Assembly (NCBI GenBank): GCA_945905765.1
Contig: CAMDPZ010000026.1
Span: 1 to 32,220, forward strand
Direction: 5' to 3'
Length of the DNA: 32,220 bases
Source of the DNA: Nitrospira lenta
GTDB taxonomy: Bacteria; Nitrospirota; Nitrospiria; Nitrospirales; Nitrospiraceae
In this document: positions 2,822 to 22,069 of the stretch, in pieces
How positions within the stretch are numbered: the first letter of the stretch is position 1
Layout of the letters: the number at the start of each line of letters is the position of its first letter
Notes under the pieces: generated by a model
The model's database searches: none
Told to the model about the DNA's origin: nothing
The model's input: the letters and a program-made list of their open reading frames with translations, nothing else
Made by a program: the position numbers and the translations under genes

Positions 2822-2825
2822 ACGA

Positions 2826-2943
2826 ATGCTGAAAAAGTCCGCCAGCATCGTTCTCAGCTCATCGAAATCCTCAACGTGCCCCTGAAGGGCACGCCTCCGG
2901 TTTCGACTCGCCTGCGGCCTTGCTGGACGAACTTTTTGAGCAT
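2826..2943. repeat. Palindromic intergenic element, copy A, with terminal inverted repeats
   Basis: The ends at 2826-2846 and 2922-2943 are imperfect inverted repeats (ATGCTGAAAAAGTCCGCCAGC against ATGCTCAAAAAGTTCGTCC on the other strand; two substitutions and one indel over about 21 bases). The centre folds as a second hairpin with arms CGTGCCC and GGGCACG (2875-2881/2887-2893), and TCGAAA/TTTCGA pair around it. The terminal sequence matches the ends of copies B and C. It carries no plausible gene. The 212-base gap from pepF to the flavodoxin gene holds this element and nothing else I can identify. Confidence 0.85.
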
Positions 2944-3033
2944 CCGTCAGAGATGCGCCCATCATGTCCCAGCCGCGCAAGCTATCAACGTTTTGCTGAG
3001 TCGAACTGGTTTTCTAAGACCTGGCAGGACAAG

Positions 3034-3669
3034 CTACTTGGCAGAACCGGCTTTGAACCTGGCGGCGACTTCAGCTACGCGCTGGCCTAGGGCCTTGGCC
3101 TCGGCCAGTTCCTTGGTATCGATGCCGGGACTGTCGCCCTCCGTCGTGGCAGAGGCGCCGAAAGCCCCACCGCCGCTGACGACGATCATCTGATTCCCCA
3201 ACATCGCAGCCAGAATCGTCAACATCGTCACTTCTTTGCCGCTAGAAATCTGGCCGCCGGTCGCAAAGGCCGCGCCGACCTTGTTCTTCATCTTGAATTC
3301 GGGAAACACACCGAACTTAAACTGCCAGCTGTCGAAAAAGGTCTTCACCTCGCCCGACATGTTCGACCAATAGACCGGCGAACCGACCACGACCGCATCG
3401 GCGGAAAATAGATCCTCCGCCGTCACCTGGCCGACCCGTTTCAGCAGCACCTCGGTGCCAGGCAAGCCTCTCGCGCCCTCTGCCACCGCTTCAGCCATGC
3501 GTTCGGTATTGCCGGAGAGAGAATGGTAGGTCACGAGGACCTTCACCGGTTGGGCCGGCTCGTCGGCGAAGGTTTCGCCGGAGCCGATGCCCGATATCAG
3601 AAGCAGGACACAGAGGAATAGCGAGCCAATGGAGCGGAGTCGTAGGATGGAGATGTGAGCAGACAACAT
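3034..3669 (-). CDS. Exported flavodoxin-like (WrbA/NADPH-dependent FMN type) protein
   Basis: The 211-residue protein has a flavodoxin fold: the FMN phosphate loop YHSLSGNTERMA comes straight after the first strand KVLVTYHS, then the GSPVYWSNMSGEVKTFFD segment typical of WrbA-like and NAD(P)H:quinone oxidoreductase families, and the GGQISSGKE and GGGAFGAS loops. With ATG 3667-3669 the N-terminus is a classic signal peptide (RLRSIG then a leucine/isoleucine core, likely cut after TFA near residue 36). A longer frame reaches 3786, but its extra 39 residues overlap the zinc-ribbon gene and precede the signal peptide. The ribosome site at 3669 is weak. It follows the zinc-ribbon gene by 44 bases. 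A periplasmic location is unusual for an FMN flavodoxin; the reaction is unknown. Confidence 0.85.
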   Translation of the reverse strand: MLSAHISILRLRSIGSLFLCVLLLISGIGSGETFADEPAQPVKVLVTYHSLSGNTERMAEAVAEGARGLPGTEVLLKRVGQVTAEDLFSADAVVVGSPVYWSNMSGEVKTFFDSWQFKFGVFPEFKMKNKVGAAFATGGQISSGKEVTMLTILAAMLGNQMIVVSGGGAFGASATTEGDSPGIDTKELAEAKALGQRVAEVAARFKAGSAK

Positions 3670-3713
3670 CGACTCACAAGGAGCAGGAATCGACGCACAG
3701 GCTTGGCGCCGAT

Positions 3714-3899
3714 TCAACGGCGGACGATTTCCTCTTCCATACGCTCTTCGACAGAGACATCCGTGAGGGCTCCGCGGTAATCGCACTTATGACAGCGGAC
3801 CCGCCAGGCTTCGATCCACTTTTCCTGCACATAGGACTGCCGGCATGTCGGACAGACAAACACGCCTTTGACGTAATGGACTTTCCTCGTCTCTTTCAT
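3714..3899 (-). CDS. Small zinc-ribbon protein
   Basis: This 61-residue basic/acidic protein has two CXXC knuckles, CPTC at residues 17-20 and CHKC about 17 residues later, followed by DYRG, which is a rubredoxin/zinc-ribbon layout likely to bind one zinc ion. It has no signal peptide. The start is well supported by AAGGGAGG a few bases upstream of the ATG. It is the first gene of a minus-strand pair with the exported flavodoxin (gap 44 bases). Such ribbons serve in nucleic-acid or protein contacts; nothing in the sequence decides which. Confidence 0.8.
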   Translation of the reverse strand: MKETRKVHYVKGVFVCPTCRQSYVQEKWIEAWRVRCHKCDYRGALTDVSVEERMEEEIVRR

Positions 3900-4007
3900 G
3901 AGCCCCTCCCTTGCTTAAGTTAGCCGAGGATCTCATAGGCAACAATATGATTGCAAGATACCAGGGCCACGGACGCCAATGGCCCTTGCCACAGCACGGC
4001 CCTCAGC

Positions 4008-4036
4008 TTGACTCATCCCCGACTGGCCGATAGGAT
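4008..4036 (+). promoter_or_regulatory. Candidate sigma-70 promoter giving a near-leaderless DUF192 transcript
   Basis: TTGACT (4008-4013) and TAGGAT (4031-4036) are separated by 17 bases. The start codon at 4043 is only seven bases past the -10 hexamer, so the first transcribed base would be at or next to the A of ATG. The AGGA inside the -10 could instead act as a ribosome site if transcription begins further upstream. Confidence 0.45.
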
Positions 4037-4042
4037 GCCGCC

Positions 4043-4504
4043 ATGCAACAACGACTCGCAGCAGTCTTCATCCTGCTCCTCCTATTCCCTTGTTCCACTG
4101 AGGCGGGAACCGACCAGGCTCCATCGGGCCTGATCCCGATTACCCTCCCCGGCGGCGCCATCATCCATGCGGAACTGGCCGACACGCCTCAGAAACGCGC
4201 GGAAGGCTTAATGTACCGCACGCACCTGGGAGCCGACCGCGGCATGCTCTTCACGTTCCTCCAGGCACAGCCCTGGACCTTCTGGATGAAGAACACCAAG
4301 ATCCCGCTCGACATCATCTGGATGAACGACAAGAAGCAGATCGTCCACATCGAGCCGAATGTCCCGATCTGCACGAGACAGGACGACAGTTGCCCGCAAT
4401 ACCGTCCGAACGACGAGTCGCTCTATGTCCTGGAACTCGCGGGAGGCAGAGCGGAGAGTTTAAAGTTGCAGCGGGAATCGAAGCTTCAGTTCAAGGTTCC
4501 GTAA
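4043..4504 (+). CDS. Exported DUF192 (COG1430) family protein
   Basis: A 153-residue protein with a cleavable signal peptide (residues 1-22, core AAVFILLLLFPCS) and one DUF192 domain. The family signatures are visible: RAEGLMYRT near residue 52, DRGMLFTF, then PWTFWMKNTKIPLDIIWM around residues 77-96, and the closing VLELAGG. DUF192 proteins are widespread and exported, and no biochemical role is established. This copy has an extra loop with two cysteines (CTRQDDSC near residues 110-117) that could form a disulfide in the periplasm. It is divergent from the zinc-ribbon gene and convergent with rel. Confidence 0.88.
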   Translation: MQQRLAAVFILLLLFPCSTEAGTDQAPSGLIPITLPGGAIIHAELADTPQKRAEGLMYRTHLGADRGMLFTFLQAQPWTFWMKNTKIPLDIIWMNDKKQIVHIEPNVPICTRQDDSCPQYRPNDESLYVLELAGGRAESLKLQRESKLQFKVP

Positions 4505-4515
4505 TAAACGAAGTA

Positions 4516-4586
4516 GGTCTATCTGGTCTTCTGGTCTGTCTAGTCTATTTGGTTAATCTCATACAACCAAACAAACCAGATAGACC
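4516..4586. terminator. Inverted repeat between convergent genes (TCTGGTC type)
   Basis: Arms GGTCTATCTGGT (4516-4527) and ACCAGATAGACC (4575-4586) are perfect complements, and TTTGGTT (4548-4554) pairs with AACCAAA (4565-4571) inside them around a ten-base loop. The region between is built of degenerate TCTGGTCT/GTCTA units. Its position between the convergent DUF192 and rel genes suggests a bidirectional terminator, although no T-tract follows on either side. It may equally be a repeat of the kind seen at 19-99. Confidence 0.6.
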
Positions 4587-4613
4587 GAATAGACATCAGA
4601 ACAAGACAGGCGC

Positions 4614-6794
4614 TTATGACCGTTCCTGCCAGGCCCGTAATCTTCTCGCGGTAATGACGCCATCCACCCGTTCGACGGCTTTCAGCACCTGATCAAGATG
4701 CTGGGTGCCGGACACTTCCACGACGAAATCCAGCACCGCCTTCTGATCCTCCCGCGTCGTAATCTCGGCGCGGCTGATATTGGCGTGGCAGGCTGCAATC
4801 GCAGAGGACACATTCGCCAGCACCCCGGTCTTATCGACGGCCACAATGGACATTTTGACCGAATGGGTGCCGGGCGTGGCCACATCCCACTCGACCTCTA
4901 CCAACCGTTCTTTATCGTAATCCAGCGCCACAAGGTTCGGACAATCGACCGCATGAATCGTCAACCCGCGCCCTCGCGTGATATAGCCGAGGATGCGATC
5001 GCCAGGCACGGGATGACAACAACGCGACAACTGCATGAGCAGGTCGCGCGATCCCTTGACCTGCACCCCGGCGCCGTCGCTCTTCCCTCCCGCCACTTTC
5101 TGCGCGGCTGGGCGCTCCTGAACGGACTCCTGCGTTCCGGACGGGGGAGCCGTGAGTTTGCCGATGACCTGTGACGTCGCCACGCTGCCGAAGCCCACGG
5201 CGGCGGTCAATTCCTCCGTGCTGTCGAAGCCCGATTGCCGGGCCGCCTCCAACAACTCCGCCGACTTGAACATTTGAGCCGGCGCCATGCCATGACGGCG
5301 GAACTCCGACTCCAGCAACCGGCGGCCGATCTCGACGCTCCGTTTCTGTTCTTCGAGCTTGATCCAATGTTTGATCTTGGTCTTCGCGCGCGAGGTGCGG
5401 ACGAACTTCAGCCAGTCCTTGTGCGGCGTTTGCGTGGGGGAGGTCAGAATTTCGACTGTGTCGCCGCTGGCCAGCTCATGCTTGAGCGGCACGATCTTCC
5501 CGTCCACCTTGGCCCCGACGCAGTGGTCCCCGACCTCGGTATGAATCGCGAAGGCGAAATCGACGGGCGTCGATCCTTTCGGCAGCTCCTTCACGATCCC
5601 TTTGGGCGTGAACACATAGACCACATCGTGAAAGAGATCGAGCTTCACCGAGTCCATGAATTGCCGGTTATCCGACAAATCCTCATGCCACTCGACGAAC
5701 TGGTGGAGCCAGCCGAAGGCCTTGCTGTCGCGATCGGCGACCTGCCCTTGCTCCTTGTACTTCCAATGCGCCGCGATGCCGTGCTCGGCGATGCGATGCA
5801 TCTCCTCCGTGCGGATCTGGAACTCGACGTGCTCCCCCTTCGGGCCCACCACCGTCGTATGGAGCGACTGATATAGATTGGACTTCGGAATCGCAATGTA
5901 ATCTTTGAAGCGCCCCGGCACGGGCCGCCAGAGGGAATGGATCACGCCCAGCACGGCATAACAGTTCATCTTGAGGTCCGTCACGATCCGCAACGCGGTC
6001 AAGTCATAGACCTCCTCGAACGTAATCGACTGCTTGTTCATCTTTTGATAGATGCCATAGAGGTGCTTGGGGCGGCCGTACACTTCTCCGACCAACCCAT
6101 TCTCCTGCATGGCCTTCCGCACAAGCTGGCTGACTTCATCGATGTACTGCTGCCGATCCTCATCCCGTTTCGCCACGCGGGTACGCAGCATCTCATAGAT
6201 ATCCGGCTTGAGATGTTTGAGACAGAGGTCTTCCAGCTCGTTCTTCACCCACCCGATCCCGAGGCGATTGGCCAGCGGCGCGTAGATCTCCAGCGTCTCC
6301 TGGGCGATCTCCTGCCGCTTGGCCGCGCCGAGATGTTCCAGGGTGCGCATGTTGTGGAGCCGGTCGGCGAGTTTGATAAGAACAACCCGGATATCGTCCG
6401 CCATCGAGAGCAACATCTTGCGGAAATTCTCCGCCTGCTTCTCTTCATAGCTCCGGAACGTGATCTTGCCGATCTTGGTCACCCCGTCGACCAGATGCAG
6501 CACGTCCTTGCCGAACTCTTGTTCAAGTTCGTCAGCCGTGGCGACCGTATCTTCCAGGGTATCGTGAAGGAGGCCCGCGACGATGGCGGTCACATCCGTT
6601 TTAAGCGAGGTGAGAACTCCGGCGACCGCGATGGGATGCTGCAGGTAGGGTTCTCCGGACCGGCGCCGCTGCCCTTCATGCGCTTTCGCAGAGAATTCGT
6701 AGGCCTTGCGGACTAAGCCGAGATCGGCATCGGGTGCATAGCTCTTGATCCGATCCAGCAGCTGGTCAAGATCTGTGACGGTTTCATACACCAT
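4614..6794 (-). CDS. rel: Bifunctional (p)ppGpp synthetase/hydrolase (RelA/SpoT family)
   Basis: A full-length long RSH enzyme of 726 residues that makes and degrades the alarmone (p)ppGpp in the cytoplasm. The hydrolase HD domain is intact: H53, H77-D78 and E81-D82 (LLHDTLEDT). The synthetase domain has GRPKHLYGIYQKM, the RFKDYIA motif typical of bifunctional enzymes, YQSLHTTV, EFQIRT and EHGIAAHW. A TGS domain (VYVFTPKGIVKELPKGSTP), the conserved-cysteine region (RCCHPVPGD) and a C-terminal ACT domain follow, so ribosome-linked regulation should be present. No synthetase or hydrolase key residue seems lost. ATG 6794 lies seven bases after the recJ stop, with GGAG upstream, so the two genes are probably co-transcribed. 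Confidence 0.96.
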   Translation of the reverse strand: MVYETVTDLDQLLDRIKSYAPDADLGLVRKAYEFSAKAHEGQRRRSGEPYLQHPIAVAGVLTSLKTDVTAIVAGLLHDTLEDTVATADELEQEFGKDVLHLVDGVTKIGKITFRSYEEKQAENFRKMLLSMADDIRVVLIKLADRLHNMRTLEHLGAAKRQEIAQETLEIYAPLANRLGIGWVKNELEDLCLKHLKPDIYEMLRTRVAKRDEDRQQYIDEVSQLVRKAMQENGLVGEVYGRPKHLYGIYQKMNKQSITFEEVYDLTALRIVTDLKMNCYAVLGVIHSLWRPVPGRFKDYIAIPKSNLYQSLHTTVVGPKGEHVEFQIRTEEMHRIAEHGIAAHWKYKEQGQVADRDSKAFGWLHQFVEWHEDLSDNRQFMDSVKLDLFHDVVYVFTPKGIVKELPKGSTPVDFAFAIHTEVGDHCVGAKVDGKIVPLKHELASGDTVEILTSPTQTPHKDWLKFVRTSRAKTKIKHWIKLEEQKRSVEIGRRLLESEFRRHGMAPAQMFKSAELLEAARQSGFDSTEELTAAVGFGSVATSQVIGKLTAPPSGTQESVQERPAAQKVAGGKSDGAGVQVKGSRDLLMQLSRCCHPVPGDRILGYITRGRGLTIHAVDCPNLVALDYDKERLVEVEWDVATPGTHSVKMSIVAVDKTGVLANVSSAIAACHANISRAEITTREDQKAVLDFVVEVSGTQHLDQVLKAVERVDGVITARRLRAWQERS

Positions 6795-6801
6795 GGCTCA
6801 C

Positions 6802-8499
6802 TCACTCCATCACACTCGGTCTCACATCGCGAATGCGGAGCTGAATCCTGTCACGGCCGTTCCAATGATTCAGTTCAGGCGTAAAGGCCAGATCCACCGG
6901 CGTGCGGGACGGAATGCCCCGCTCCAACAATGATTTGATCCCGAACGCAATACTATCGAACGGCACCGAGGAGCCTTGCCGCACCGTCATTTTCAGATGC
7001 TTCTCGCCGACCGTGCGGGCCTCCATCACTTCAAGGCGGGTCACGGCAAAGGTGGGCTCAGGATTGCCGGCCCCGAACGGATGCAGCGAACAGATTTCCT
7101 GGATCAGTTTCAGATTCACTTCGTCCAGCCGGACCTCGGCATCGACATTCAACGTCGGCACCTTGGCCCCCTCGTGGGTCCAGCCTACGACTGCATCAGA
7201 AAATTTGGCGCGGAACTCGTCGATCCTGGATTCGCAAATCGTCACTCCGGCAGCGCTGGGATGGCCGCCGAATGCCTCCAGCATCTCCCGGCAGGACGCC
7301 AAACCTTGATAGAGATCAAACCCGCCGGTCGTCCGCGCCGAGCCCTTCGCAATGCCCTGCTCATTGATCGCCATAACGATCGCCGGACGCTGAAACCGAT
7401 CGACTAAGCGAGCGGCGACAATCCCGACCACGCCAAGATGCCAATGGCGGGACGCCAAAACCAATGCGGGCGGCAACTCTTTATCCTTCAATGACGCCAG
7501 CGCCTCTTCCATGATGTCCACTTCGATGCGCTGCCGTTCCCGATTCAACTGCTCCAACCGGTCTGCCAACTGCTGCGCCTCGAGCGGATTGTCGGTCGTC
7601 AGCAACCGCACGCCTAGCATGGCATCGTCCAATCGCCCGGCGGCATTGATACGGGGCGCCAGCTTGAAGGCAATCGTTTCCGCCGTGCAATCCCGCGTCA
7701 CCCCCGCCACCTGCTTCAAGGCCCGCACGCCGCAGCGCGCGCCGCGCGACAACTGAACCAGCCCCTCACGCACAAAATTTCGATTCTCATCGTGCAACGG
7801 CACCACATCGGCCACTGTCGCCAAAGCCACGAGATCGAGCAACGACTCCAACGGCACCCCGGCCACCCCGTAACGCAACTGATAGGCCTGCGCCACCTTG
7901 TAGGCCAGCGCCGCAGAGCAGAGCCCGCGGAAGGGATAGAGGGCCCCGGCGCGATGGGGATTGAGCACCGCCACAGCCGGAGGCATCTCCTCGTCGCTCT
8001 GGTGATGGTCGGTCACCACCACATCCATGCCCAGCTTGGCCGCCAACGCGATTTCTTTGTGCGAAGTCGTCCCGCAATCGGATGTCACCAGCAACGAGAT
8101 CCCTTCGTCATGCAGCCGCTGGACGGCGCTGAGATTGAGCCCATAGCCTTCGCGCAAACGATGCGGCACATAGGCGCGCACGTTAGCGCCCAACCCGCCG
8201 AAGAACGACATATAGACACTGGTCGCCGTAATCCCGTCGACATCGTAGTCGCCATAAAAACAAATCGGCTCCCGAGTCGTGACCGCGCGATGCAACCGTT
8301 CGACCGCCTGCTCCATATCGGGAATCAAAAACGGATCATGCGGCGACTGCAACGACATCCAGGCCGTGGCTTCATCCGGCGTGGTCACGCCGCGAGCCAA
8401 AAAGAGCGAAGCCGTGGCAGGAGAAATGGACAGGGCCTGAACCAACGAAGACCGCTGAGAGAGATTGATGTCACGGAAGACCCAGAGCTTGGATTTCAT
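6802..8499 (-). CDS. recJ: Single-stranded-DNA-specific exonuclease RecJ
   Basis: RecJ degrades single-stranded DNA 5' to 3' in recombination and mismatch repair. The 565-residue length is normal. Catalytic motifs of the DHH phosphoesterase domain are visible: YGDYDVDG (D84, D86, D88), TSDCGT (D141) and VTDHHQ (D164-H165-H166). The DHHA1 part follows, with INAAGRLDDA and later GGFDLYQGL and FGGHPSAAGV, and then the C-terminal OB-fold region (HPFGAGNPEPTF). ATG 8499 has AAAGG six bases upstream. It is the first gene of a pair with rel. Upstream lies the large palindromic element, so its promoter must be within or close to 8500-8670; I found no convincing one. Confidence 0.96.
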   Translation of the reverse strand: MKSKLWVFRDINLSQRSSLVQALSISPATASLFLARGVTTPDEATAWMSLQSPHDPFLIPDMEQAVERLHRAVTTREPICFYGDYDVDGITATSVYMSFFGGLGANVRAYVPHRLREGYGLNLSAVQRLHDEGISLLVTSDCGTTSHKEIALAAKLGMDVVVTDHHQSDEEMPPAVAVLNPHRAGALYPFRGLCSAALAYKVAQAYQLRYGVAGVPLESLLDLVALATVADVVPLHDENRNFVREGLVQLSRGARCGVRALKQVAGVTRDCTAETIAFKLAPRINAAGRLDDAMLGVRLLTTDNPLEAQQLADRLEQLNRERQRIEVDIMEEALASLKDKELPPALVLASRHWHLGVVGIVAARLVDRFQRPAIVMAINEQGIAKGSARTTGGFDLYQGLASCREMLEAFGGHPSAAGVTICESRIDEFRAKFSDAVVGWTHEGAKVPTLNVDAEVRLDEVNLKLIQEICSLHPFGAGNPEPTFAVTRLEVMEARTVGEKHLKMTVRQGSSVPFDSIAFGIKSLLERGIPSRTPVDLAFTPELNHWNGRDRIQLRIRDVRPSVME

Positions 8500-8673
8500 G
8501 AAGACCTTTCGAATGGTTCTGAGTCGAGACAGAGGCTAACTATCTGAGAATTAAAGGGATACTAGCCGCTCGTTGCTGCGTTGTCAAACCAGCGACCGGA
8601 AAGCCGCATCAGTATTGGTTCTCACGCGAGCGCATCGAGAGTCTCCATGTTGGCACGCCAGGAAAGCACTCCC

Positions 8674-9009
8674 GCAGGATGCTCAAACCATCCGTCCAAC
8701 AAGGCCGCAGGCAAACGATCCAAGATGGTCCTTCCAAGCTTGCTCGTGTACGTTTCTCAGGCTGGCCTGGATGAATCCCCCACTGCGCGCGTCCAACGAT
8801 ATAGTACTCCCTCCAAGCTCGCTTGTTTTTCTCTTCAAAGGGTGACCTGGTCGATCCTCGATTGCGCGCGTCGAACGAGCACATTCTGATCGTGCGCGTT
8901 CCGCGAGCAGGAGGACGACCAGGCTACCCTTCTTCTCCCACGCGTTGCGCGAGCACAGGGGATTCACCGGGCCAGCCCACCCTGTTGGCGAACGGTTTCA
9001 GCATCCTGC
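8674..9009. repeat. Nested palindromic element, copy B (one element interrupting another)
   Basis: Terminal inverted repeats lie at 8674-8700 and 8984-9009 (GCAGGATGCTCAAACC against GCAGGATGCTGAAACC). An outer stem of about 20 pairs is at 8760-8780/8958-8977, and an inner one at 8838-8859/8911-8931. The conserved core halves TGCGCGCGTCCAACGA (8784-8799) and CGCGTTGCGCGAGCAC (8941-8956) are separated by a second, diverged core (TGCGCGCGTCGAACGA at 8863-8878; GTGCGCGTTCCGCGAG near 8892-8907). The left flanks of both units also match (CTTCCAAGCTTGCT near 8731, CCTCCAAGCTCGCT near 8810). The whole 8500-9054 stretch has no credible gene; short frames in it are palindrome-derived. Confidence 0.85.
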
Positions 9010-9054
9010 AGAATATCGACCGGTGAGATGAGGAGAAGGAGAGGAAGAAAAAGA

Positions 9055-9079
9055 GGGGAGTAGCCTGTCGCTACTCCCC
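9055..9079 (-). terminator. Rho-independent terminator overlapping the end of pup
   Basis: GGGGAGTAGC (9055-9064) and GCTACTCCCC (9070-9079) form a perfect ten-base stem with a five-base loop. On the minus strand it is followed by TCTTTTTCTTCC, a good T-tract. One arm includes the last codons and TAG stop of pup, so the terminator is partly coding. On the plus strand the hairpin is followed by CCCTTTTT and may stop transcription from the other side too. Confidence 0.85.
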
Positions 9080-9268
9080 CCCTTTTTGCACGTAGTTCTT
9101 AACGAATTCTTCTGCGTTTTTCTCGAGGACGTCGTCGATTTCATCGACCAGCTTGTCGATGTCTTCTTTCATCTTCTTGCCGGCTTCGACGACCTTCGGA
9201 TTGGCCTTAACGTCGTCTTTCCCCTGCGGTTCTCGCTTGGGCTCTTGTTTGCGCTCCTGTTTTTCCAT
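9071..9268 (-). CDS. pup: Prokaryotic ubiquitin-like protein Pup
   Basis: A 65-residue, highly charged protein whose C-terminal half carries the Pup signature: DKLVDEIDDVLEKNAEEF followed by VKNYVQKGGE. Pup is attached through its C-terminal side chain to lysines of target proteins by PafA and directs them to the bacterial proteasome. The terminal residue is Glu65 after Gly-Gly, so the activating deamidation by Dop needed for Gln-ending Pups is not required here. The disordered N-terminal half is rich in K, E and Q, as in the family. ATG 9268 has a strong GGGAGG site. No dop, pafA, mpa or proteasome subunit gene lies in the window, so pup stands alone between a palindromic element and hppA. 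Confidence 0.93.
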   Translation of the reverse strand: MEKQERKQEPKREPQGKDDVKANPKVVEAGKKMKEDIDKLVDEIDDVLEKNAEEFVKNYVQKGGE

Positions 9269-9315
9269 CCGAGCACCTCCCGTACAGCTGGGAAACTCTC
9301 GTGGACCAGCACAAC

Positions 9316-9360
9316 GTGATCCCTGCGATCACCTTACTCCAAGGCCATTTCAGCCGTCAA
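9316..9360 (-). promoter_or_regulatory. Candidate pup promoter with overlapping palindrome
   Basis: On the minus strand TTGACG (9355-9360) and TAAGGT (9331-9336) are 18 bases apart, about 60 bases upstream of the pup ATG. The inverted repeat GTGATC-CCTGC-GATCAC (9316-9332) starts at the downstream edge of the -10 and covers the expected transcription start, a typical repressor position. The -10 match is weak, so this is tentative. Confidence 0.35.
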
Positions 9361-9424
9361 GCCAACCGAAAAAACCGTCAAACGTGAAACGTAAAACCTG
9401 AAACGACGTAAACCCTTAGCTATC

Positions 9425-9477
9425 AGCCGTCAGCATTCAGCCATCAGCACGGAGCTGAAAGCTGAATACTGACGGCT
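9425..9477. terminator. Inverted repeat downstream of hppA (possible terminator)
   Basis: Arms AGCCGTCAGCATTCAGC (9425-9441) and GCTGAATACTGACGGCT (9461-9477) pair with a single mismatch over 17 bases and a 19-base loop. It begins about 15 bases past the hppA stop on the minus strand, so it may end that transcript. It lacks a T-tract and resembles the other low-complexity palindromes of this window. Next to it (9376-9415) are degenerate GTGAAACGTAAAACC-like units. Confidence 0.6.
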
Positions 9478-9492
9478 TCCATGCTCGTCCTA

Positions 9493-11544
9493 TCACACGA
9501 GCAACGAGACAATAAGAAGAGCCACAATATTAATAACCTTGATCATCGGGTTGATCGCCGGACCGGCCGTATCCTTGTAGGGATCGCCGACTGTGTCGCC
9601 GGTGACGGCAGCCTTATGCGTGTCCGTCCCCTTCATGCCCTGCTCTTCAATATATTTCTTGGCATTGTCCCAAGCGCCGCCGCCGCTCGTCATCGAGATG
9701 GCCACGAACAGACCGGTCACGATGCTGCCGACGAGCATGCCGCCCAAGGCCTGCGGCCCCAGGACCACGCCAACCAGAATGGGTGAAATGACCGGGATCA
9801 ATCCCGGCACCATCATCTTCTTGATCGCCGCCTGCGTCACGATGTCCACGCAAGTCCCGTATTCCGGCTTGCCCGTGCCTTCCATGATCCCCTTGATCGT
9901 CCGGAACTGCCGCCGCACTTCTTCCACCACGAGGCCTGCTGCTTCTCCCACGGCCTTCATACAGAGGGCCCCGAAAATGAAAGGCAGCATGCCGCCCAGG
10001 AAGAGTCCGACCAGGACCGAAGGATTGGAAAGGTCAAACGTACTCGCCCCGCTCCCCTTCGCCACTTCGCGGGCATATTCGGCGAACAGCACCACCGCCG
10101 CAAGGCCGGCCGATCCGATCGCATAGCCCTTCGTCACGGCTTTGGTCGTGTTGCCGACCGCATCCAATGGATCAGTGATGTCCCGCACCTCTTTGCCGAG
10201 GTGCGCCATCTCCGCGATCCCGCCCGCATTGTCGGTAATCGGACCAAAGGCATCGATCGCCACCACAATCCCGGCCATCGACAACATCGAGACAGCCGCA
10301 GTGGCCACACCATACACCCCCCCCGAAGCCGCGCCGCCACAGAGCCAGTAGCTCGTCAGAATCGCCGCGCCGATCACCACCACCGGCAAAGCCGTTGCCT
10401 CCATTCCCACCGCTAAACCCGCAATGATGTTCGTCGCATGGCCCGTTTCACTGGCCTTGGCAATCGCCTTCACCGGCGCATAGCTCTTGGAGGTGTAGTA
10501 ATCGGTGATAAACACGAGGGCGAGGGTCACGGCCAAGCCGATCAACGAGGCGAGGTAGTAGCTCATCCCGCTCACGCCACCCACACCCTCCATGATCGAG
10601 GTTGTCACGGGGTAGAAGGCCACCGCAGCGATGCCGCCCGCCACGAACAGGCCCTTGTAAAGCGCCGGCATGATCCCGCCGCCTTCGCTCACCTTCACAA
10701 AGAGGATGCCGATGATTGTCGCGAAGATCGTCACGCCGCCCAACGCCAGAGGATAGAGAATCGGCGCGCTATTCCCTTTGAACAGGGTAAACGCCAGGAC
10801 CATCGCCGCGACCGTTGTCACGGCGTAGGTCTCGAAGAGGTCCGCGGCCATACCGGCGCAATCGCCGACATTGTCGCCCACATTGTCCGCGATGACTGCC
10901 GGGTTGCGCGGATCGTCTTCCGGAATCCCCGCTTCCACTTTTCCGACAAGGTCCGCTCCGACATCCGCCGCTTTCGTGTAAATACCGCCGCCCACCCGGG
11001 CAAAGACCGAAATCAAACTGCCGCCGAATCCAAGGCTCAGCAGGGCATGAATCGCCTTCTCCTGCCCGGCAATCTGCGACGCCACCACATAGAACGTCGT
11101 GATGGCCAGCAGGCCCAGGCCGATCAACAAGAGCCCCGTCACCGCGCCGCCACGGAAGGCCACGGTCAGCGCCGCATTCATCCCATTATGCGCGGCCTGC
11201 GCCGTCCGTACGTTCGCCCGCACCGCGATAACCATGCCCACATAGCCAGCCAGCGACGACGCGCCGGCGCCAATCAAAAATCCAATCGCAGTCAGCAGAC
11301 CGAACTTGTCAGAGAACGCCCCTGCGCCCCACAACATCGCGAATAACACAGCGGCGACGACGCCAACAGTCCGATACTGGCGGTTCAGATAGGCGCTCGC
11401 GCCTTCCTGAATGGCCTTGGCAATTTCTTGCATCTTTGGATTGCCGGCATCCAGCTTAAAGACCCACATGGCCAGATAGAGGCCGTAGGCAATGCCGGTC
11501 ACCGCCGATACCAACGCAAACGTAATGATGGATGAGTCGCTCAC
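9493..11544 (-). CDS. hppA: K+-independent membrane proton-pumping pyrophosphatase
   Basis: An integral inner-membrane enzyme of 683 residues that couples pyrophosphate hydrolysis to proton translocation. The membrane runs are consistent with the usual 16 helices. The catalytic loop [19 protein letters not shown], then [20 protein letters not shown], and the C-terminal [14 protein letters not shown] are intact. Lys468 in [10 protein letters not shown] replaces the alanine of K+-dependent enzymes, which by established family rules marks the K+-independent, H+-pumping subclass. The start is GTG 11542-11544 with AGGAGGAG six or seven bases upstream. The leader from the candidate promoter at 11682-11710 is about 130 bases and has a small hairpin (GGGTGT/ACACCC) just before the ribosome site. 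It is probably monocistronic. Confidence 0.96.
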
Positions 11545-11681
11545 AATGGTCTCCTCCTGTTAGGGGTGTTGGGGGACACCCATTTCCTCTGGCCTCCATC
11601 CATCACGATGACGTGTTCGATGGGAAACCGCGAAGTGGTACAGAATCGATCCGTGCAGCTAACTAACTGAAAAGTCGGGCC

Positions 11682-11710
11682 ATTCTATACAAGTGAGAGA
11701 AGGGGATCAA
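11682..11710 (-). promoter_or_regulatory. Candidate sigma-70 promoter for hppA
   Basis: On the minus strand TTGATC (11705-11710) and TAGAAT (11682-11687) are spaced by 17 bases. Transcription would start near 11675 and give a leader of about 130 bases before the GTG start. The promoter lies next to palindromic element copy D. Confidence 0.4.
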
Positions 11711-11733
11711 GGACGAAAAAGTGGAGTGATAGA

Positions 11734-11813
11734 GGCTGAGGATCTTCTGTGCTCGCGCAACGCGCGGCCTCAGAAGGCCCTCGTTGGACGCGCGCAATGG
11801 AAGATCAACAGCC
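11734..11813. repeat. Palindromic element core, copy D (no terminal repeats)
   Basis: This is the same core hairpin as copy C in inverse orientation: GTGCTCGCGCAACGCGCGG (11750-11768) through to CTCGTTGGACGCGCGC (11780-11795). An outer stem GGCTGAGGATCTTC/GAAGATCAACAGCC (11734-11747/11800-11813) has two mismatches. The apical stem GGCCT/AGGCC (11766-11770/11775-11779) replaces GGCTT/AAGCC of copy C, a paired change that keeps the helix. I could not find terminal repeats. The gene-free stretch 11545-11957 otherwise holds only the hppA promoter and leader. Confidence 0.8.
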
Positions 11814-11957
11814 CCCATCCCATAAAGAGAACAATCGAAACTGGAAGAGAGACAGAAGCGGGCATCTTCCAGAGAGAACATGGAAAGGGGATCACAGCAG
11901 CTGACTGGTTTGCGGATCAAAAAGAGAGTTGTTATAGTCCGCGCAGGTGGAGGGCCT

Positions 11958-12212
11958 ATGGGAATGGAACCGAATTACATCGTCATCGACGGGCAGACGT
12001 TCAGCAAGGCGAAGCTGTCGCTGGACAACCACGTCTACAAGAATTGTGCGATTGACGACTGCGACATCTATTTCAGCGGTGGGCAATACGAGCTGCTCGA
12101 CACCCACATCACCAATTCCCGCCTCATCCTCAACCACCCGGCGAAGGGCATGTACAGCGCCGTGCAAATCTTTAAGATGAAGTCGCCTGGCTCACAAGTT
12201 ATTTTCGAGTGA
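11958..12212 (+). CDS. Small hypothetical protein, possible beta-strand repeat
   Basis: I do not recognise this 84-residue protein. It has short alternating strands with regularly placed hydrophobic and Asn/Asp/Cys residues (KNCAIDDCDIYFSGGQYE, then LLDTHITNSRLILNHPAKG), which looks like two or three turns of a pentapeptide- or right-handed beta-helix-like fold. There is no signal peptide. GGAGGG at 11949-11954 supports a start at ATG 11958 (short spacing) or ATG 11964 (longer spacing); the frame is open back to 11880 but without another ribosome site. It stands alone on the plus strand, convergent with the cytochrome operon (15 bases between the stops). Confidence 0.65.
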   Translation: MGMEPNYIVIDGQTFSKAKLSLDNHVYKNCAIDDCDIYFSGGQYELLDTHITNSRLILNHPAKGMYSAVQIFKMKSPGSQVIFE

Positions 12213-12227
12213 CCCGCTGACCTCTCG

Positions 12228-13466
12228 CTACTTCGCAGTCGAGATATTCGCCGCAAACTTCACGATCTCGATCGACTGGAAGACCGGATCTTGCGAGCCT
12301 TTGGAGGACTCCGCTTCGACTCGCTGCAGGAAGGAGGCCGGGCCGGTGATCGGCGCATAGTTGAGGGTGACTTCAACATCGAAGGTCTTAGTGTCTTTCG
12401 GCGTGGGGAAGGTAAAGGTCTCGACGCGTGTCTCTTCCGGCTTCAAGACCGTATCCTCGAGAACTTTGACCGCCTCGAAGTCGAAGCTGGTCTTCTGCCC
12501 CTTGGCATCCTGATAAACCCGCCCATAGACCCGCTTGTCGGTAAAGACGGTCTTTAAATTCTTTCCTTTGATATCCAGTTCCAGCGCCACGCTCGCCCAG
12601 GCCGGATGGGTAGTCGGCAGGCTGTGCGGCACGAGACTCTGCACCTTCACCGTGACGATGGTCTTGTCGCCCTCGATTTTCGTCTGCACGTCCAACTTAG
12701 CCGCTTCCTGGCGGAGCTTGCCGATACGACCAGGGAATGTATGGTTCGCGGTTTTCCGCTTCTTCTCCCCGTTGGCCGACTCCCCCACCTGCTCCGGCAT
12801 GTGGCAGCTCTGGCATTCTTTACCTGACTTTACCGCCTTGCTCTGATCCCAATTGCCCAGCAGATCATTACTCTTGCCTAAGTTGGCAGCAGAAGGCACA
12901 GACTGGTGGCAATTGAGGCAGAGATCGGATTTCTGAAAGAGCCCCAGCTCCATCGACTGGTGAGCCAGGTTCTGCACAAAGTCCTTATAGGGACCGTAGA
13001 GCGTCTTGCTCCCCAATTCGTACTTGGGCTCCGGCGGCTGTTTGGTCCGGTCGACCTGTTTGATCAAATGGCATTGCGCACAGGCCACCCCATCCAGCGA
13101 AGGGTCGCCGGCCTTGGCCTGATCGATAAAGAGCTGGGCCTGTTCGGGGAATTCGCGCACATGGGGCGCATGGCAACGGAAGCAGAGGGCCTTGTCTTTT
13201 CCTGCCGGAGACGCCAGGAACGCATCGAGCGAGGCGCGGAAGGCCGGGGAATGAATGGACTTCGAGAGCGGCGAGGTTTCCCATTCTTCAAACACGCGCT
13301 CATGGCACCGCTTGCACTTGCTGGAGCTGGGAAAGGCCTTTTCAAGGGTGGGCTTAGGAACCTCTTGCGCATAGAGGGCATGATCGAGCCACTGCGACAG
13401 ACACAAGGCCGCCACAATCACTGCGCCAATCCCAAGCTTCACACCCATCGAATGTCGTCCCATCAT
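12228..13466 (-). CDS. Five-haem c-type cytochrome (cytochrome c554-like), second of a tandem pair
   Basis: A 412-residue exported cytochrome. A signal peptide (about residues 1-34) ends in LYAQ. Five CXXCH haem sites follow: CKRCH 51-55, CFRCH 95-99, CAQCH 129-133, CLNCH 183-187 and CQSCH 218-222. The second half has no haem sites and looks like a beta-sandwich (VTVKVQSLVPHSLPTTHP, later FTFPTPKDTKTFDVEV). The haem region resembles the cytochrome c554 group of multihaem electron carriers; a periplasmic electron-transfer role is inferred. It shares CHLIK-x-V and YGPY-x-D with the upstream paralogue, 22 bases away in the same operon, so the pair arose by duplication. ATG 13466 (double ATG) has AAGGG upstream. 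Confidence 0.9.
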   Translation of the reverse strand: MMGRHSMGVKLGIGAVIVAALCLSQWLDHALYAQEVPKPTLEKAFPSSSKCKRCHERVFEEWETSPLSKSIHSPAFRASLDAFLASPAGKDKALCFRCHAPHVREFPEQAQLFIDQAKAGDPSLDGVACAQCHLIKQVDRTKQPPEPKYELGSKTLYGPYKDFVQNLAHQSMELGLFQKSDLCLNCHQSVPSAANLGKSNDLLGNWDQSKAVKSGKECQSCHMPEQVGESANGEKKRKTANHTFPGRIGKLRQEAAKLDVQTKIEGDKTIVTVKVQSLVPHSLPTTHPAWASVALELDIKGKNLKTVFTDKRVYGRVYQDAKGQKTSFDFEAVKVLEDTVLKPEETRVETFTFPTPKDTKTFDVEVTLNYAPITGPASFLQRVEAESSKGSQDPVFQSIEIVKFAANISTAK

Positions 13467-13488
13467 GCGGCCCTTCTACTTCAATGGC

Positions 13489-14793
13489 TCAGAAATTTTT
13501 CGCCCGATACGTTAAAAGGCGTGGCTGCGTATATTCGTCAAAAATTTTCCTGGCAAGCTCCCGCTCTTTATCGGTCGCCAAGGTGGCGAGATACTTTTCC
13601 TTGAGCGCGGGCTCCGGCGTCGGGATCAACGCATAGTTCAAGACCGCTTCAATCGAGGCAGCCGTCGTGCCGGCCGGGAGCGCCAGAGAGAAGGGCACTT
13701 TCCTCGTGTGCCCGCCCTTGATGAAGGGGTCTGGAATCGGGCCGCGGAGAATCTTGTCATAGGGCAAACCGAACTGCTTGGTCTCTTCCTTCAGCACCTT
13801 GCCCTGCGCATCCTTGGCGGTCAGAACCAGATAGAACTGCTTGAGCACCGGATCTCCGTCCGGAAAACTGTGCGGAAGGCTGCCGATTTTCACCAGCGCC
13901 GTTCCCTCCACCGCCGAGGCAGACTTGGTGGTCTCAAGATCCACGCGGGGCATCCATTCGGCCTGGAGGTTGCGATTCTTGAGGAGCGTACCGGGGATCA
14001 CCACGCCGCGGAACCAATGGCGGCCGATCGCGCGGGTCATGGACCCGCGCCGCGAAGTGGAGCTACCTGTCGAGGGCTCCATATGGCAGTCCTGACATAC
14101 CGTCCCCTGCAAAATCTCCCCTGCCAGATCCTTCTGCGTCACATCCTTCACCTTATCGAAGTGACAGGAGGCGCAATAGTTCGCGCCGCGAAACAAATCG
14201 GACTGCGCCGCAGGATGGACGAGATTTTCCTCCGGATCCGCATAGGGACCATAGATCATCTTGCCTGGCTCGATCTTGAATGAAGGCGGAGAGTTCTCGG
14301 TCTGTTCGACCTTCTTGATCAGATGGCAGGAGGCACAACCGATGCCTTCCACTTGCGGCTTACCAGACAATACCTGGGCCACGATCTTCTCGGCATGTTG
14401 CGGGAACACGGTCGTCGAAGGCACATGACAGGAGAGACAGCGGCGACGCTCGTCAGTGGTCGGATTGGTCTGGAGCCAGACGCCCAACACGGTACGGAAG
14501 ACCGGCGACTCCAGCGAGGTGCCGTGCAAGAGCGCCGCATCGACCCGGCCAAAGGTCTTGAGATCCGGCGTCTGCTCGCGCACGCCTTTCCACTCTTCAT
14601 AATGCCGGTCGTGGCATTGCTTACAGTCTTCCGATCTGATGAAGATCTTTTCGATTTCCTCCACCCAATCGGACGACGCCTTGACGTCTGACTTCTGGGC
14701 GATGGCAGGGCCTTGAGACAGGCCAATGGCGCCCATCATGAACAGAAGAAGAAAACCGGCCGCAATGCGATGTCCAGGCCTGCGTCGTAGCAT
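13489..14793 (-). CDS. Five-haem c-type cytochrome (cytochrome c554-like), first of a tandem pair
   Basis: A 434-residue exported multihaem cytochrome. The signal peptide is MLRRRPGHR plus a hydrophobic core, probably cut after AIAQ near residue 33. Haem-binding motifs are CKQCH 57-61, CLSCH 119-123, CASCH 153-157, CASCH 207-211 and CQDCH 233-237, with a haem-free C-terminal domain (residues about 260-434) that again contains a SLPHSFPDGDP turn like its neighbour. I chose ATG 14793 because it gives a normal signal peptide and follows the PDZ gene's stop by two bases; the frame extends to 14838 inside that gene. Likely a periplasmic electron carrier, translationally linked to the PDZ protein. 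Redox partner unknown. Confidence 0.9.
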   Translation of the reverse strand: MLRRRPGHRIAAGFLLLFMMGAIGLSQGPAIAQKSDVKASSDWVEEIEKIFIRSEDCKQCHDRHYEEWKGVREQTPDLKTFGRVDAALLHGTSLESPVFRTVLGVWLQTNPTTDERRRCLSCHVPSTTVFPQHAEKIVAQVLSGKPQVEGIGCASCHLIKKVEQTENSPPSFKIEPGKMIYGPYADPEENLVHPAAQSDLFRGANYCASCHFDKVKDVTQKDLAGEILQGTVCQDCHMEPSTGSSTSRRGSMTRAIGRHWFRGVVIPGTLLKNRNLQAEWMPRVDLETTKSASAVEGTALVKIGSLPHSFPDGDPVLKQFYLVLTAKDAQGKVLKEETKQFGLPYDKILRGPIPDPFIKGGHTRKVPFSLALPAGTTAASIEAVLNYALIPTPEPALKEKYLATLATDKERELARKIFDEYTQPRLLTYRAKNF

Positions 14794-14795
14794 GA

Positions 14796-15269
14796 TCAAT
14801 CCCGCCTGCATCCGACAAAATGGAAATTCACACCCCACCCGACCGGATCGCCTGGATCGGCAGGCTCATAGGTGCCGACGGTGAAGTTGCATTCTTTCAT
14901 CCCGCGCTTGATCGCTTTCCCGAAGTCGAGCATGTTCCTGATCTCGGTCTTGTCGATTTCCTTGATGACGGACCGGACCTTGATGCCGGCATAGTCGGCG
15001 CGCGAGTTTCCGATCACTTCAAACACGGCGACACCCTGCGCCCGTTCCAACTTCAATTCTCGTTTAATCTCCTCGTCCACATCTCCGACGATCACGCCGA
15101 AATCTTCCCCCAGCTTCGCGGCTTCCTCCACGGTCATCGGCTCCAATTCAGCCGCTGACGCAAGACCACTCACTAGTCCAAGGCTGAGTCCAAAACACAA
15201 AAGAAAGGCCCTTCCACTCCGAAGGGCCTTTGTGCGAGCGCTCACTGAGCCGATACGAACATCCTCCAA
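14796..15269 (-). CDS. Exported PDZ-domain protein
   Basis: A 157-residue protein with an arginine-rich n-region, a hydrophobic core (FLLCFGLSLGLVSG) and a probable cut after ASA near residue 39. A single PDZ domain follows: GVAVFEVIGNSRADYAG as carboxylate loop and strand, IKVRSVIKEIDKTEIRNMLD and the closing helix. There is no protease domain, so it is probably a periplasmic peptide-binding adaptor. Two cysteines remain in the mature form (KECN and VGCRRD). The start is TTG 15267-15269 with AAAGG eight bases upstream; GTG 15245 is the alternative. It leads the operon of two five-haem cytochromes, so a role in their assembly or anchoring is a reasonable guess. A terminator-shaped hairpin lies in its 5' coding part. 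Confidence 0.82.
   Translation of the reverse strand: MEDVRIGSVSARTKALRSGRAFLLCFGLSLGLVSGLASAAELEPMTVEEAAKLGEDFGVIVGDVDEEIKRELKLERAQGVAVFEVIGNSRADYAGIKVRSVIKEIDKTEIRNMLDFGKAIKRGMKECNFTVGTYEPADPGDPVGWGVNFHFVGCRRD
15204..15231 (-). terminator. Terminator-like hairpin inside the 5' end of the PDZ gene
   Basis: AAAGGCCCTT (15204-15213) and AAGGGCCTTT (15222-15231) form a perfect ten-base stem with an eight-base loop. Read on the minus strand it is followed by CTTTTGTGTTTT. This is the shape of an intrinsic terminator directed into the PDZ-cytochrome operon. It covers codons about 13-22 of the PDZ gene if the TTG start is right, so it is either an attenuator within coding sequence or part of an untranslated leader. 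Confidence 0.6.
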
Positions 15270-15331
15270 CGTGTGCGCCTTTCTACGGCCATCCCACCAA
15301 GAGACTTAGCCGGCTTCGGAAAAACCATCCC

Positions 15332-15500
15332 GCAGGCTGCTCAAACAGTTCGTCAGCAAAGCCGCAGAAGAACTATCCTTCTCTAAGGGGTGGCTGGGAT
15401 GATCCCTACTGCGCGCGTCCAACGAGGGCTTTCTCAAGCCGCGCGTTGCGCGAGCACGGGGATCGTCCCAGCTACCCCGTCTCCCTTTTCAGCAGCCTGT
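15332..15500. repeat. Palindromic intergenic element, copy C, with terminal inverted repeats
   Basis: The ends CAGGCTGCTCAAA (15333-15345) and TTTCAGCAGCCTG (15487-15499) are inverted repeats with one mismatch. Inside, a 20-base stem without mismatches other than two G-T pairs joins 15387-15406 and 15459-15478. Within that is the core hairpin 15411-15455, with apex GGCTT-TCTC-AAGCC (15427-15440). The right end is immediately next to the stop codon of the NxrC-like gene (15501-15503). The element shows no gene of its own. Confidence 0.88.
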
Positions 15501-16325
15501 CTAGAGCTTCGCAACCGGATCAATCACCAACTGAAACCACGGCGCGACAGATTTCTGCCCGTTCCGTTCTTTGTTCTCACCGTTCCACACGGCAAAGGAC
15601 ACGGTTTGGACCCGGCCTGGAATCAGCTTGGCTTCATTCTCCTGCTCTTCGCTCACCAGGGGTCTGCGCATGACCACATGCCAGACTCCGTCTTTCCAGA
15701 CAGCCTTGCCCTGGACCCGCCCCTGCTTTTCTTTGGTCGTTAAGGTACTGAAGCCTCCGCCGATGAGGTCTTCAACCGACGAGACCCGCCGCGGAATGAC
15801 TTCGAACGTCCGCACGCCCTCGCGGGCCCTCTCCGAGGCCCGGGCGGCCCGGCGATCGATATCGCTCTGCCAATCGGCTTTCCAATGCCAGATATTGATG
15901 TAGTGATCAAGTTGGCCCATGCAGAAAAATGCTGGAGCATCGCCGAGCGGCAACCCGATCGCGACGCCGTCGCGAAAAGTTCCTGGCGTCAAACGATCGT
16001 TCTTCGTGTTGTCCTGCCATTCCAGCAGAAACGCGATTTCGATGCCGTTGTGGAGCGTCCGTACCGTTAAAGCCCGCGCCGTCGGCTCAGGCCAGACCGG
16101 TCTGGTAATGACCTGTCCGCTCAAGGGAAGGGTCATTGGCGCCACGGTGGCCCAGGCGGCATCCTCCGGCCCAACCGGCAGCTCCCCCTCGACGACACGC
16201 GCGCGAATGATCATCCCCTCGGAACTGACGAGGGGCACGCCGAAGCCGACGAACACGCCGGCAACGACCAGGATGAACAGGAGCAACAGTAACGGGCGGG
16301 AATCAATCTTCGTCGTACGCACCAT
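15501..16325 (-). CDS. Short NxrC/EbdC-like heme-b-binding protein
   Basis: A 274-residue member of the ethylbenzene-dehydrogenase gamma (EbdC/NxrC) heme-b family. A hydrophobic segment at residues 11-30 is a signal peptide or membrane anchor. Shared with the protein at 22070-23023 are PLSGQ-x-IT, LEW-x-D-x-TKND, F-x-CMGQ (Met136), NIW-x-W-x-A-x-WQ, VSSVEDL, GFSTLTT and ERNG-x-K (Lys258). In EbdC heme b is held by a methionine and a lysine, so Met136 and Lys258 are the likely ligands. It lacks the long loop of its paralogue after WQ. ATG 16325 has GAGGA upstream. It follows the NHL gene by 91 bases with a candidate promoter between, and its stop touches palindromic element C. Confidence 0.85.
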   Translation of the reverse strand: MVRTTKIDSRPLLLLLFILVVAGVFVGFGVPLVSSEGMIIRARVVEGELPVGPEDAAWATVAPMTLPLSGQVITRPVWPEPTARALTVRTLHNGIEIAFLLEWQDNTKNDRLTPGTFRDGVAIGLPLGDAPAFFCMGQLDHYINIWHWKADWQSDIDRRAARASERAREGVRTFEVIPRRVSSVEDLIGGGFSTLTTKEKQGRVQGKAVWKDGVWHVVMRRPLVSEEQENEAKLIPGRVQTVSFAVWNGENKERNGQKSVAPWFQLVIDPVAKL

Positions 16326-21891: not shown

Positions 21892-21969
21892 CCATGGGAG
21901 CCGTCTCCCTGCTTACTGAGAAGGAACCAAACGAATAATCTTTGCAGCTGATCACCTCCGCAGAAAAAG

Positions 21970-22010
21970 AGAAAACCCCAGCCCGGCCTGATGCCGGACT
22001 GGGGTTTTCT
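21970..22010 (-). terminator. Intrinsic terminator after nxrC
   Basis: AGAAAACCCCAG (21970-21981) and CTGGGGTTTTCT (21999-22010) form a perfect 12-base stem, continued after one mismatch by CCGGC/GCCGG with a five-base loop. The minus-strand reading is followed by CTTTTTCTG. It lies 60 bases past the NxrC-like stop. A smaller hairpin (GGTCTC/GAGACC, 22047-22062) lies between. Confidence 0.9.
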
Positions 22011-22069
22011 CGCTACACTATCACTCACGCCTTAAGGGTGCGAGATGGTCTCTCCAGAGACCGGTTTCC

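What the first reader, a model, noticed from the sequence alone, without database searches (positions are those of the whole stretch)
2826..15500. A family of nested palindromic intergenic elements with terminal inverted repeats
Copies A (2826-2943), B (8674-9009) and C (15332-15500) share the ends CAGG-C/A-TGCT-C/G-AAA and the same 20-odd base inverted arrangement, and B, C and D share a core (TGCGCGCGTCCAACGA ... CGCGTTGCGCGAGCAC). The ends look like those of a non-autonomous mobile element (MITE or REPIN-like), yet there is no transposase in the window. The whole of copy C can fold into one long hairpin: a 20-pair stem, a second core stem and an apex. Seen directly: the repeats. Inference: that they move and are transcribed.
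Basis: partly seen in the sequence, partly recalled or inferred. Interest (0 to 1): 0.75.

Follow-up and report, generated by a model that had tools for sequence, protein, structure and literature searches.

The report
Nitrospira hairpin repeats at stop codons
The repeats are real, but they are two things mixed together: a small jumping-DNA-like element that often sits right behind TAG stop codons, and a separate folded hairpin, with a fixed tip and a varying but still matching stem, that often lies just behind the stop codons of genes in Nitrospira and its near relatives.

Summary

(1) A MITE-like element. Copy A is the left 123 nt of a unit of about 200 nt with inverted CAGG ends and a probable 4-bp YTAR target duplication. 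Half of this genome holds 39 copies, and 59% of a close relative 86; 17 and 35 of them begin exactly behind a stop codon, mostly TAG. No RAYT gene occurs in either genome, and no autonomous partner was found in the DNA searched.

(2) The B/C/D core is a separate 48-nt hairpin tip (62 copies in 2.69 Mb) on an outer stem that covaries. It mostly points away from stop codons of any type and also stands between atpD and atpC, and nuoA and nuoB. All 31 matching genomes of 148 sampled in the phylum belong to the window's family.

B and C are chimeras: MITE arms around core hairpins, with one core nested in another in B.

Most likely: a new REP-like hairpin family acting in mRNA behind stop codons, partly carried by a new MITE. 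The function is inferred; a purely selfish reading stays open.

The parts
2819..2821 (+). TAG stop codon of the upstream gene (980-2821, peptidase M3 family); copy A starts at the next base
2822..2947 (+). Copy A: A-type hairpin, the left part of the MITE-like unit; end form ACGAATGC...GCATCCGT; no clear second end was recognised to its right
8674..9009 (-). Copy B: MITE arms around a core hairpin whose tip is split by a second core hairpin; 61 nt from the stop of the small called gene 9071-9268
8784..8799 (-). One half of the outer, split core of copy B
8863..8910 (-). Inner, intact core of copy B
8941..8956 (-). Other half of the outer, split core of copy B
11728..11823 (+). Copy D: core hairpin without MITE arms, between two divergent called genes (11544 and 11958), so not behind a stop codon
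11749..11796 (+). 48-nt core of copy D
15332..15500 (-). Copy C: C-type chimera, CAGG arms around a core hairpin, one base behind the TAG stop of the gene 15501-16325 (minus strand)
15410..15457 (-). 48-nt core of copy C
15501..15503 (-). TAG stop codon (CTA on the plus strand) of the gene next to copy C

Best explanation
Two families share the space behind genes. (1) A non-autonomous MITE of about 200 nt: inverted ends beginning CAGG, an internal 123-nt hairpin and a 4-bp YTAR (mostly CTAG) target duplication of the kind known for IS5. It enters CTAG-like sites, and TAG stop codons are where such entries survive, so copies abut stop codons. (2) A structured core hairpin: a conserved 48-nt tip with fixed mismatches and a GA bulge, on an outer stem that stays paired while its sequence varies. 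It lies mainly in the sense strand just behind stop codons, also inside operons (atpD-atpC, nuoA-nuoB). I think it acts in the mRNA as a post-stop or intercistronic hairpin, as reported for E. coli REPs close to a stop codon, and is not a terminator. C-type copies are MITE arms carrying a core hairpin. Shown: copies, ends, placement, orientation bias, covariation, restriction to one family among the genomes sampled. Inferred: past transposition by an IS5-like enzyme, action at RNA level, and any effect on translation or stability.
For: MITE: 39 and 86 copies with unrelated flanks; second end in 40 of 171 copies, 34 of them at 57-66 nt; 15 of 40 with a 4/4 target repeat, including CTAA/CTAA twice and CTAT/CTAT once; one clean empty site; begins exactly behind a stop in 17 of 39 and 35 of 86 copies, TAG in 11 and 26 of these although the three stops are used about equally; stop TAGs occupied 26 of 418 against 16 of 4408 other intergenic TAGs in G001, and 11 of 352 against 0 of 2890 here. 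Core: unfiltered stem pairing 63.2% against 47.5% shuffled, best of 2000 shuffles 51.3%, 87 non-redundant copies; the core pair 10-38 is CG in 46 and GC in 39 of 87; sense gene on the left in 46 of 60 and 68 of 89 copies; 46 arm-less copies 8-36 nt behind a stop, with TGA 21, TAG 20, TAA 5, and a T-rich stretch behind only 2 of 46; intercistronic positions in atp and nuo; 9 of 10 genomes with an intact (8) or truncated (1) core directly behind atpD; 31 of 148 phylum genomes matched, all of the window's family.
Against: No expression data. Target repeats: because CTAG is so frequent, 20% would match 4/4 by chance. At the two sites compared in several genomes the 7 empty genomes carry TAA or TGA, not TAG, so a pre-existing TAG is not shown there. 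In this genome 0 of 13 non-abutting copies follow a TAG, unlike 14 of 38 in G001. Core: 33 of 120 arm-less copies have an antisense gene on the left; copy D lies between divergent genes; three copies of own+G001 lie close to an antisense stop only. No transposase with these ends was found. Gene calls come from a simple caller of my own.
Confidence: 0.55

Rival explanations
1. Both families are purely selfish palindromic DNA. Stem pairing is kept by DNA-level processes (template switching, arm-to-arm correction, or single-strand folding during movement), and the position behind stop codons only marks where insertions are tolerated.
For: Fast turnover: of 36 comparable A-type sites I read only about 11 as still A-type in the other genome; nested cores; two old stem alleles exchanged between species at atpD; no known function.
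Against: Sense bias of cores (68 of 89, nearest antisense stop 80 nt away in the other-species set); conserved mismatches and bulge in the tip; retention at the atpD site in 9 of 10 genomes, counting one truncated copy; 22 of 31 core sites kept between two species.
Confidence: 0.3
2. The elements are bidirectional transcription terminators that spread as repeats.
For: A-type arms have an A-tract, a GC-rich stem and a T-tract; copies sit at gene 3' ends.
Against: Core hairpins lack a T-rich stretch (2 of 46) and stand between atpD/atpC and nuoA/nuoB, where termination would be harmful; in the A-type the two tracts lie far apart.
Confidence: 0.1
3. They are REPINs moved by a RAYT (Y1 tyrosine) transposase.
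For: Palindromic intergenic repeats; 33 of 61 relatives have a PF01797 match; one-sided TAG next to the end recalls the GTAG tag of REPs.
Against: No PF01797 in this genome or in G001; six RAYT-type loci without full copy or close arm; a second end and probable 4-bp target duplication, which single-strand Y1 movement does not make (recalled).
Confidence: 0.04

Closest known systems
REP / BIME elements of E. coli, especially REPs within 15 nt of a stop codon (PMC12306157, passages)
   Same: Palindromic intergenic repeats in many copies, some right behind stop codons, where they are reported to stall ribosomes and lower translation.
   Different: Sequence unrelated as far as recalled; here a 48-nt tip is fixed and the outer stem varies with compensation; strong sense bias; no RAYT in the two genomes read; a covariance model matched only one bacterial family in the sample.
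GTAG- and CGTC-tagged palindromic repeats (PMC3733652, passages)
   Same: Short palindromes with a tag tetranucleotide beside the hairpin; CGTC types lack a dedicated transposase.
   Different: Nitrospira is not named in that text; here the tag is YTAG/YTAR beside a 123-200 nt unit with a second end.
MITEs derived from IS5-type elements (YTAR target duplication: PMC10359306, two passages)
   Same: Inverted ends, no gene, many copies, YTAR-like target repeat.
   Different: No parent element found; PF01609 absent from this genome and from G001.
ERIC / IRU and Correia elements (recalled, no call)
   Same: Palindromic MITE-like intergenic repeats of about 100-160 nt.
   Different: Recalled to use TA targets and to have other sequences; not tested here.

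Membership tests
MITE | terminal inverted repeats with precise ends | tested here: met
   left end in all 30 aligned copies; second end in 40 of 171
MITE | target-site duplication | tested here: inconclusive
   15 of 40 match 4/4 against 20% expected across copies; CTAA and CTAT cases informative
MITE | many copies, no transposase gene inside | tested here: met
   39 and 86 copies of a ~200-nt unit
MITE | autonomous partner with the same ends | tested here: not met
   none in 2.69 Mb or in 80 scan loci; most other genomes were not read through
REPIN/RAYT | RAYT (PF01797) gene in the genome | tested here: not met
   absent from G000 and G001
REPIN/RAYT | RAYT gene flanked by the repeat | tested here: not met
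   0 of 6 loci with full copy or close arm, one weak internal match
IS701-derived | PF13546 transposase in the lineage | tested here: not met
   1 of 31 genomes, an order-level relative; none of the 19 genomes of the genus searched
IS5-derived | YTAR target duplication | tested here: inconclusive
   mostly CTAG, also CTAA and CTAT
IS5-derived | DDE transposase PF01609 in the genome | tested here: not met
   absent from G000, G001, G015, G020; present in 3 of 7 genomes searched
Intrinsic terminator (core hairpin) | T-run behind the hairpin | tested here: not met
   2 of 46
Known Rfam RNA | match to an Rfam model | tested here: not met
   none at gathering in the window; none near the copies at E up to 5
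Structured RNA motif | covariation beyond shuffled controls | tested here: met
   (the second on a filtered alignment)
Structured RNA motif | transcription | not testable with these tools
   no expression data
Integron attC site | attC box motifs at the hairpin base and cassette arrays | not tested
   only compared by eye with recalled boxes

The most novel reading that the evidence does not exclude
The core hairpin is a lineage-wide RNA device of the Nitrospira family: a constant tip (fixed mismatches and a GA bulge) read by an unknown protein, placed right behind the stop codons of many genes, including inside the ATP synthase and NADH dehydrogenase operons, with a stem free to vary or be exchanged as long as it pairs. 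A MITE that targets TAG stop codons has captured the hairpin (C-type chimeras) and so carries this post-stop signal to new genes.
Probability: 0.2. Interest if true: 0.85.

Novelty: new variant of a known kind. Interest (0 to 1): 0.6.

Why it matters
Nitrospira genomes carry many such repeats at gene ends (48-348 first-look candidates per same-genus genome for the A-type query, of which only about 14 per genome were scored). I found no description of them (full-text searches; only openly licensed papers are held). If the core hairpin acts in mRNA it is a genome-wide post-stop signal in important nitrifiers, and the fixed tip on a covarying stem says what a binding protein would read. The MITE shows how mobile DNA can use stop codons as safe harbours and could spread a regulatory hairpin.

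Tried and rejected
REPIN/RAYT: rejected on the absence of PF01797 here and in G001 and on six RAYT-type loci without full copy or close arm. IS701: suggested by YTAG (recalled), not supported by PF13546. Autonomous copies: spans between two ends in 2.69 Mb and in 80 scan loci held host-type genes or one unmatched ORF; two PF01609 loci of other genomes showed no pair of these ends (one of them partly masked). attC/integron: considered because elements follow stop codons; compared only by eye with recalled boxes. Intrinsic terminator: rejected for the core.

An early idea that the hairpin copies its target as an inverted repeat (note) was not borne out: pairing inside the coding sequence was 10.3 bp against 9.3 with swapped right flanks. 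Seven of 14 ortholog pairs had element identity below 0.6, which looked like rapid stem rewriting; the ten-genome atpD panel shows exchange of two old alleles instead, and some of the 14 pairs with weak flanks may not be true orthologs. The first pairing register gave no signal; register +2 did.

Limits. Gene calls are from a simple codon-usage caller. The A1 alignment was filtered for copies pairing at 10 or more of 14 positions and below 70% arm identity (24 kept of 105, plus three window copies), so its covariation counts are flattered; one search is unfiltered. In one search the kinship of 97 genomes without a match was not listed.
Full report
WHAT WAS CHECKED. The window is contig C26 of a 2.33 Mb, 115-contig genome, 90% complete. 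Copies A, B, C and the fourth copy D (11749-11796) are in the sequence as described. Each folds better than its shuffles (z -5.6 to -7.8). Copy C finds 45 places in its own genome (40 of 94 candidates scored), copy A 40 (40 of 148 scored). They are a genome-wide repeat, not chance.

FAMILY 1, THE MITE-LIKE ELEMENT. The 30 fetched A copies align from end to end while flanks differ. In 1.16 Mb of this genome I find 39, and in 1.53 Mb of the close relative G001 86. A consensus query matches 56 of 61 relatives, including all 31 of the same genus, at 94-99% identity in the matches listed. Comparison of right flanks showed that copy A is only the left part of the unit: a second end, TTTTTCCGCAGCCTG, is recognised in 40 of 171 copies (4 of 171 with shuffled flanks), in 34 of the 40 at 57-66 nt, giving a unit of about 200 nt. 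The 4 bases outside the two ends agree fully in 15 of 40; 20% would by chance, since CTAG is so common, so the informative cases are CTAA/CTAA (two) and CTAT/CTAT (one). One site gives a clean before/after picture: a unit between TTAG and CTAGAGGC in G001, and CCCTAGAGGCC here. YTAR is the reported target duplication of IS5 (PMC10359306, two passages). No IS5-like parent was found.

WHY STOP CODONS. In one fixed orientation the element begins at the base after a stop codon in 17 of 39 own and 35 of 86 G001 copies; the stop is TAG in 11 and 26 of these, although the three stops are used about equally. In 34 copies read from loci of other genomes of the genus the preceding triplet is TAG in 19. 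Among copies that abut no called gene it is TAG in 14 of 38 in G001 but in 0 of 13 here. Stop TAGs are also preferred over other TAGs: 26 of 418 against 16 of 4408 in G001, 11 of 352 against 0 of 2890 here. The simplest reading is target choice plus survival. At the copy-C stop codon 16 genomes show A-type (6), C-type (4), other interiors behind a CAGG arm (3) or nothing (3); at the copy-A stop codon 4 of 8 are occupied. The 7 empty genomes have a stop at the same place, but TAA or TGA, which speaks against a simple pre-existing TAG at those two sites.

FAMILY 2, THE CORE HAIRPIN. The shared core is a separate 48-nt repeat, 62 copies in 2.69 Mb, 45 of them without a CAGG arm. Its tip is nearly invariant, with conserved unpaired or mismatched positions. 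The outer stem varies in sequence: in 87 non-redundant copies 63.2% of the stem positions pair, against 47.5% when right arms are shuffled among copies (best of 2000 shuffles 51.3%). Within the core one pair is CG in 46 and GC in 39 of 87. A 27-row alignment, filtered for good pairing and therefore flattering, has 18 of 28 pairs with changes on both sides and 143 double-change cells against 50 in shuffles. No Rfam family matches near the copies.

PLACEMENT. Read in one direction, the core has a sense gene on its left in 46 of 60 copies here and in G001 and in 68 of 89 copies of the other-species loci; in the latter 27 of 57 arm-less sense copies begin 9-33 nt behind the stop, while the nearest antisense stop is 80 nt away. 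Against this, three copies of own+G001 are close to an antisense stop only, and copy D of the window lies between divergent genes. Over all sets arm-bearing copies are 27:2 and arm-less ones 87:33 sense to antisense. Forty-six arm-less copies lie 8-36 nt behind a stop; stops are TGA 21, TAG 20, TAA 5, so this is not the MITE's TAG preference; only 2 of 46 are followed by a T-rich stretch. Two lie between genes whose proteins match ATP synthase alpha/beta and epsilon-chain families, and NADH dehydrogenase chain 3 and 20 kDa families.

SPREAD. A covariance model matches 31 of 148 genomes sampled over the phylum, all of the window's family, in 5 genera; one listed genome of the family has no match, and 97 genomes without match are not listed by kinship.

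HOW THE TWO MEET. Copies C and B have MITE arms with a core hairpin inside; 17 of 62 cores have such an arm. In copy B and in two other places a core is split at its tip by another core hairpin, which explains the nested palindromes.

EVOLUTION, BOTH WAYS. Of 86 A-type copies of G001, 36 had their left flank in the own sequence in hand; I read about 11 of these sites as still A-type, 3 as C-type, 2 as arm only, 3 as remnants and 17 as without (by eye). For cores 22 of 31 comparable sites hold a core in both. Seven of 14 ortholog pairs had very different elements. The ten-genome atpD-atpC panel puts this in place: one stem allele in G000, G003, G017, G013 and G008, another in G001, G010, G011 and, truncated, G009, while G015 has another hairpin without the core. 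The atpD proteins of G000, G001, G003 and G015 are listed at 100% identity, so alleles were exchanged rather than rewritten by fast mutation.

VERDICT. The more interesting part is the core hairpin: mostly sense-oriented, covarying, post-stop, and seen in one bacterial family among the genomes sampled. I think action at RNA level more likely than not, but no expression data were available. In the papers searched I found no description of either family; one survey lists palindrome counts for Nitrospira moscoviensis in a table (PMC12306157, passages).

Noticed in passing
window 21969-22011: A 19-bp near-perfect inverted repeat with a 5-nt loop, terminator-like in look.
   Followed up: no
window 26302-27192: Four 39-nt direct repeats 126-459 nt apart inside one reading frame, probably protein repeats.
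   Followed up: no
window 15501-16325 and 22070-23014: Two related genes: the first matches the ethylbenzene dehydrogenase family and its protein also matches the second. Nitrite oxidoreductase-type subunits are possible (recalled).
   Followed up: partly
L387 (G015, behind atpD): A different hairpin without the core stands directly behind the same stop codon; other unrelated palindromes behind stops appear, so a hairpin at this position may matter more than its sequence.
   Followed up: partly
G001 C3 near 75651, own C2 near 75202 and others: Lone stop-side arms followed by a GATGAACGATGA-type repeat: a further palindromic repeat type behind the same arm.
   Followed up: no
own contigs C3 (about 2-12 kb) and C6 (about 1-8 kb): A block of several genes occurs on both contigs: a duplication or an assembly artefact. 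Counts of copies may include a few duplicates from it.
   Followed up: no
downstream of several core hairpins, e.g. behind the inner core of copy B (read on the minus strand, about 8800-8845): A tail resembling AACGAGCAAGCTTGGAAGG follows many core hairpins and may belong to the mobile unit.
   Followed up: no
L240 648-710: A weak internal A-type match (14.6 bits) lies just upstream of a RAYT-type ORF at 765-1607.
   Followed up: no
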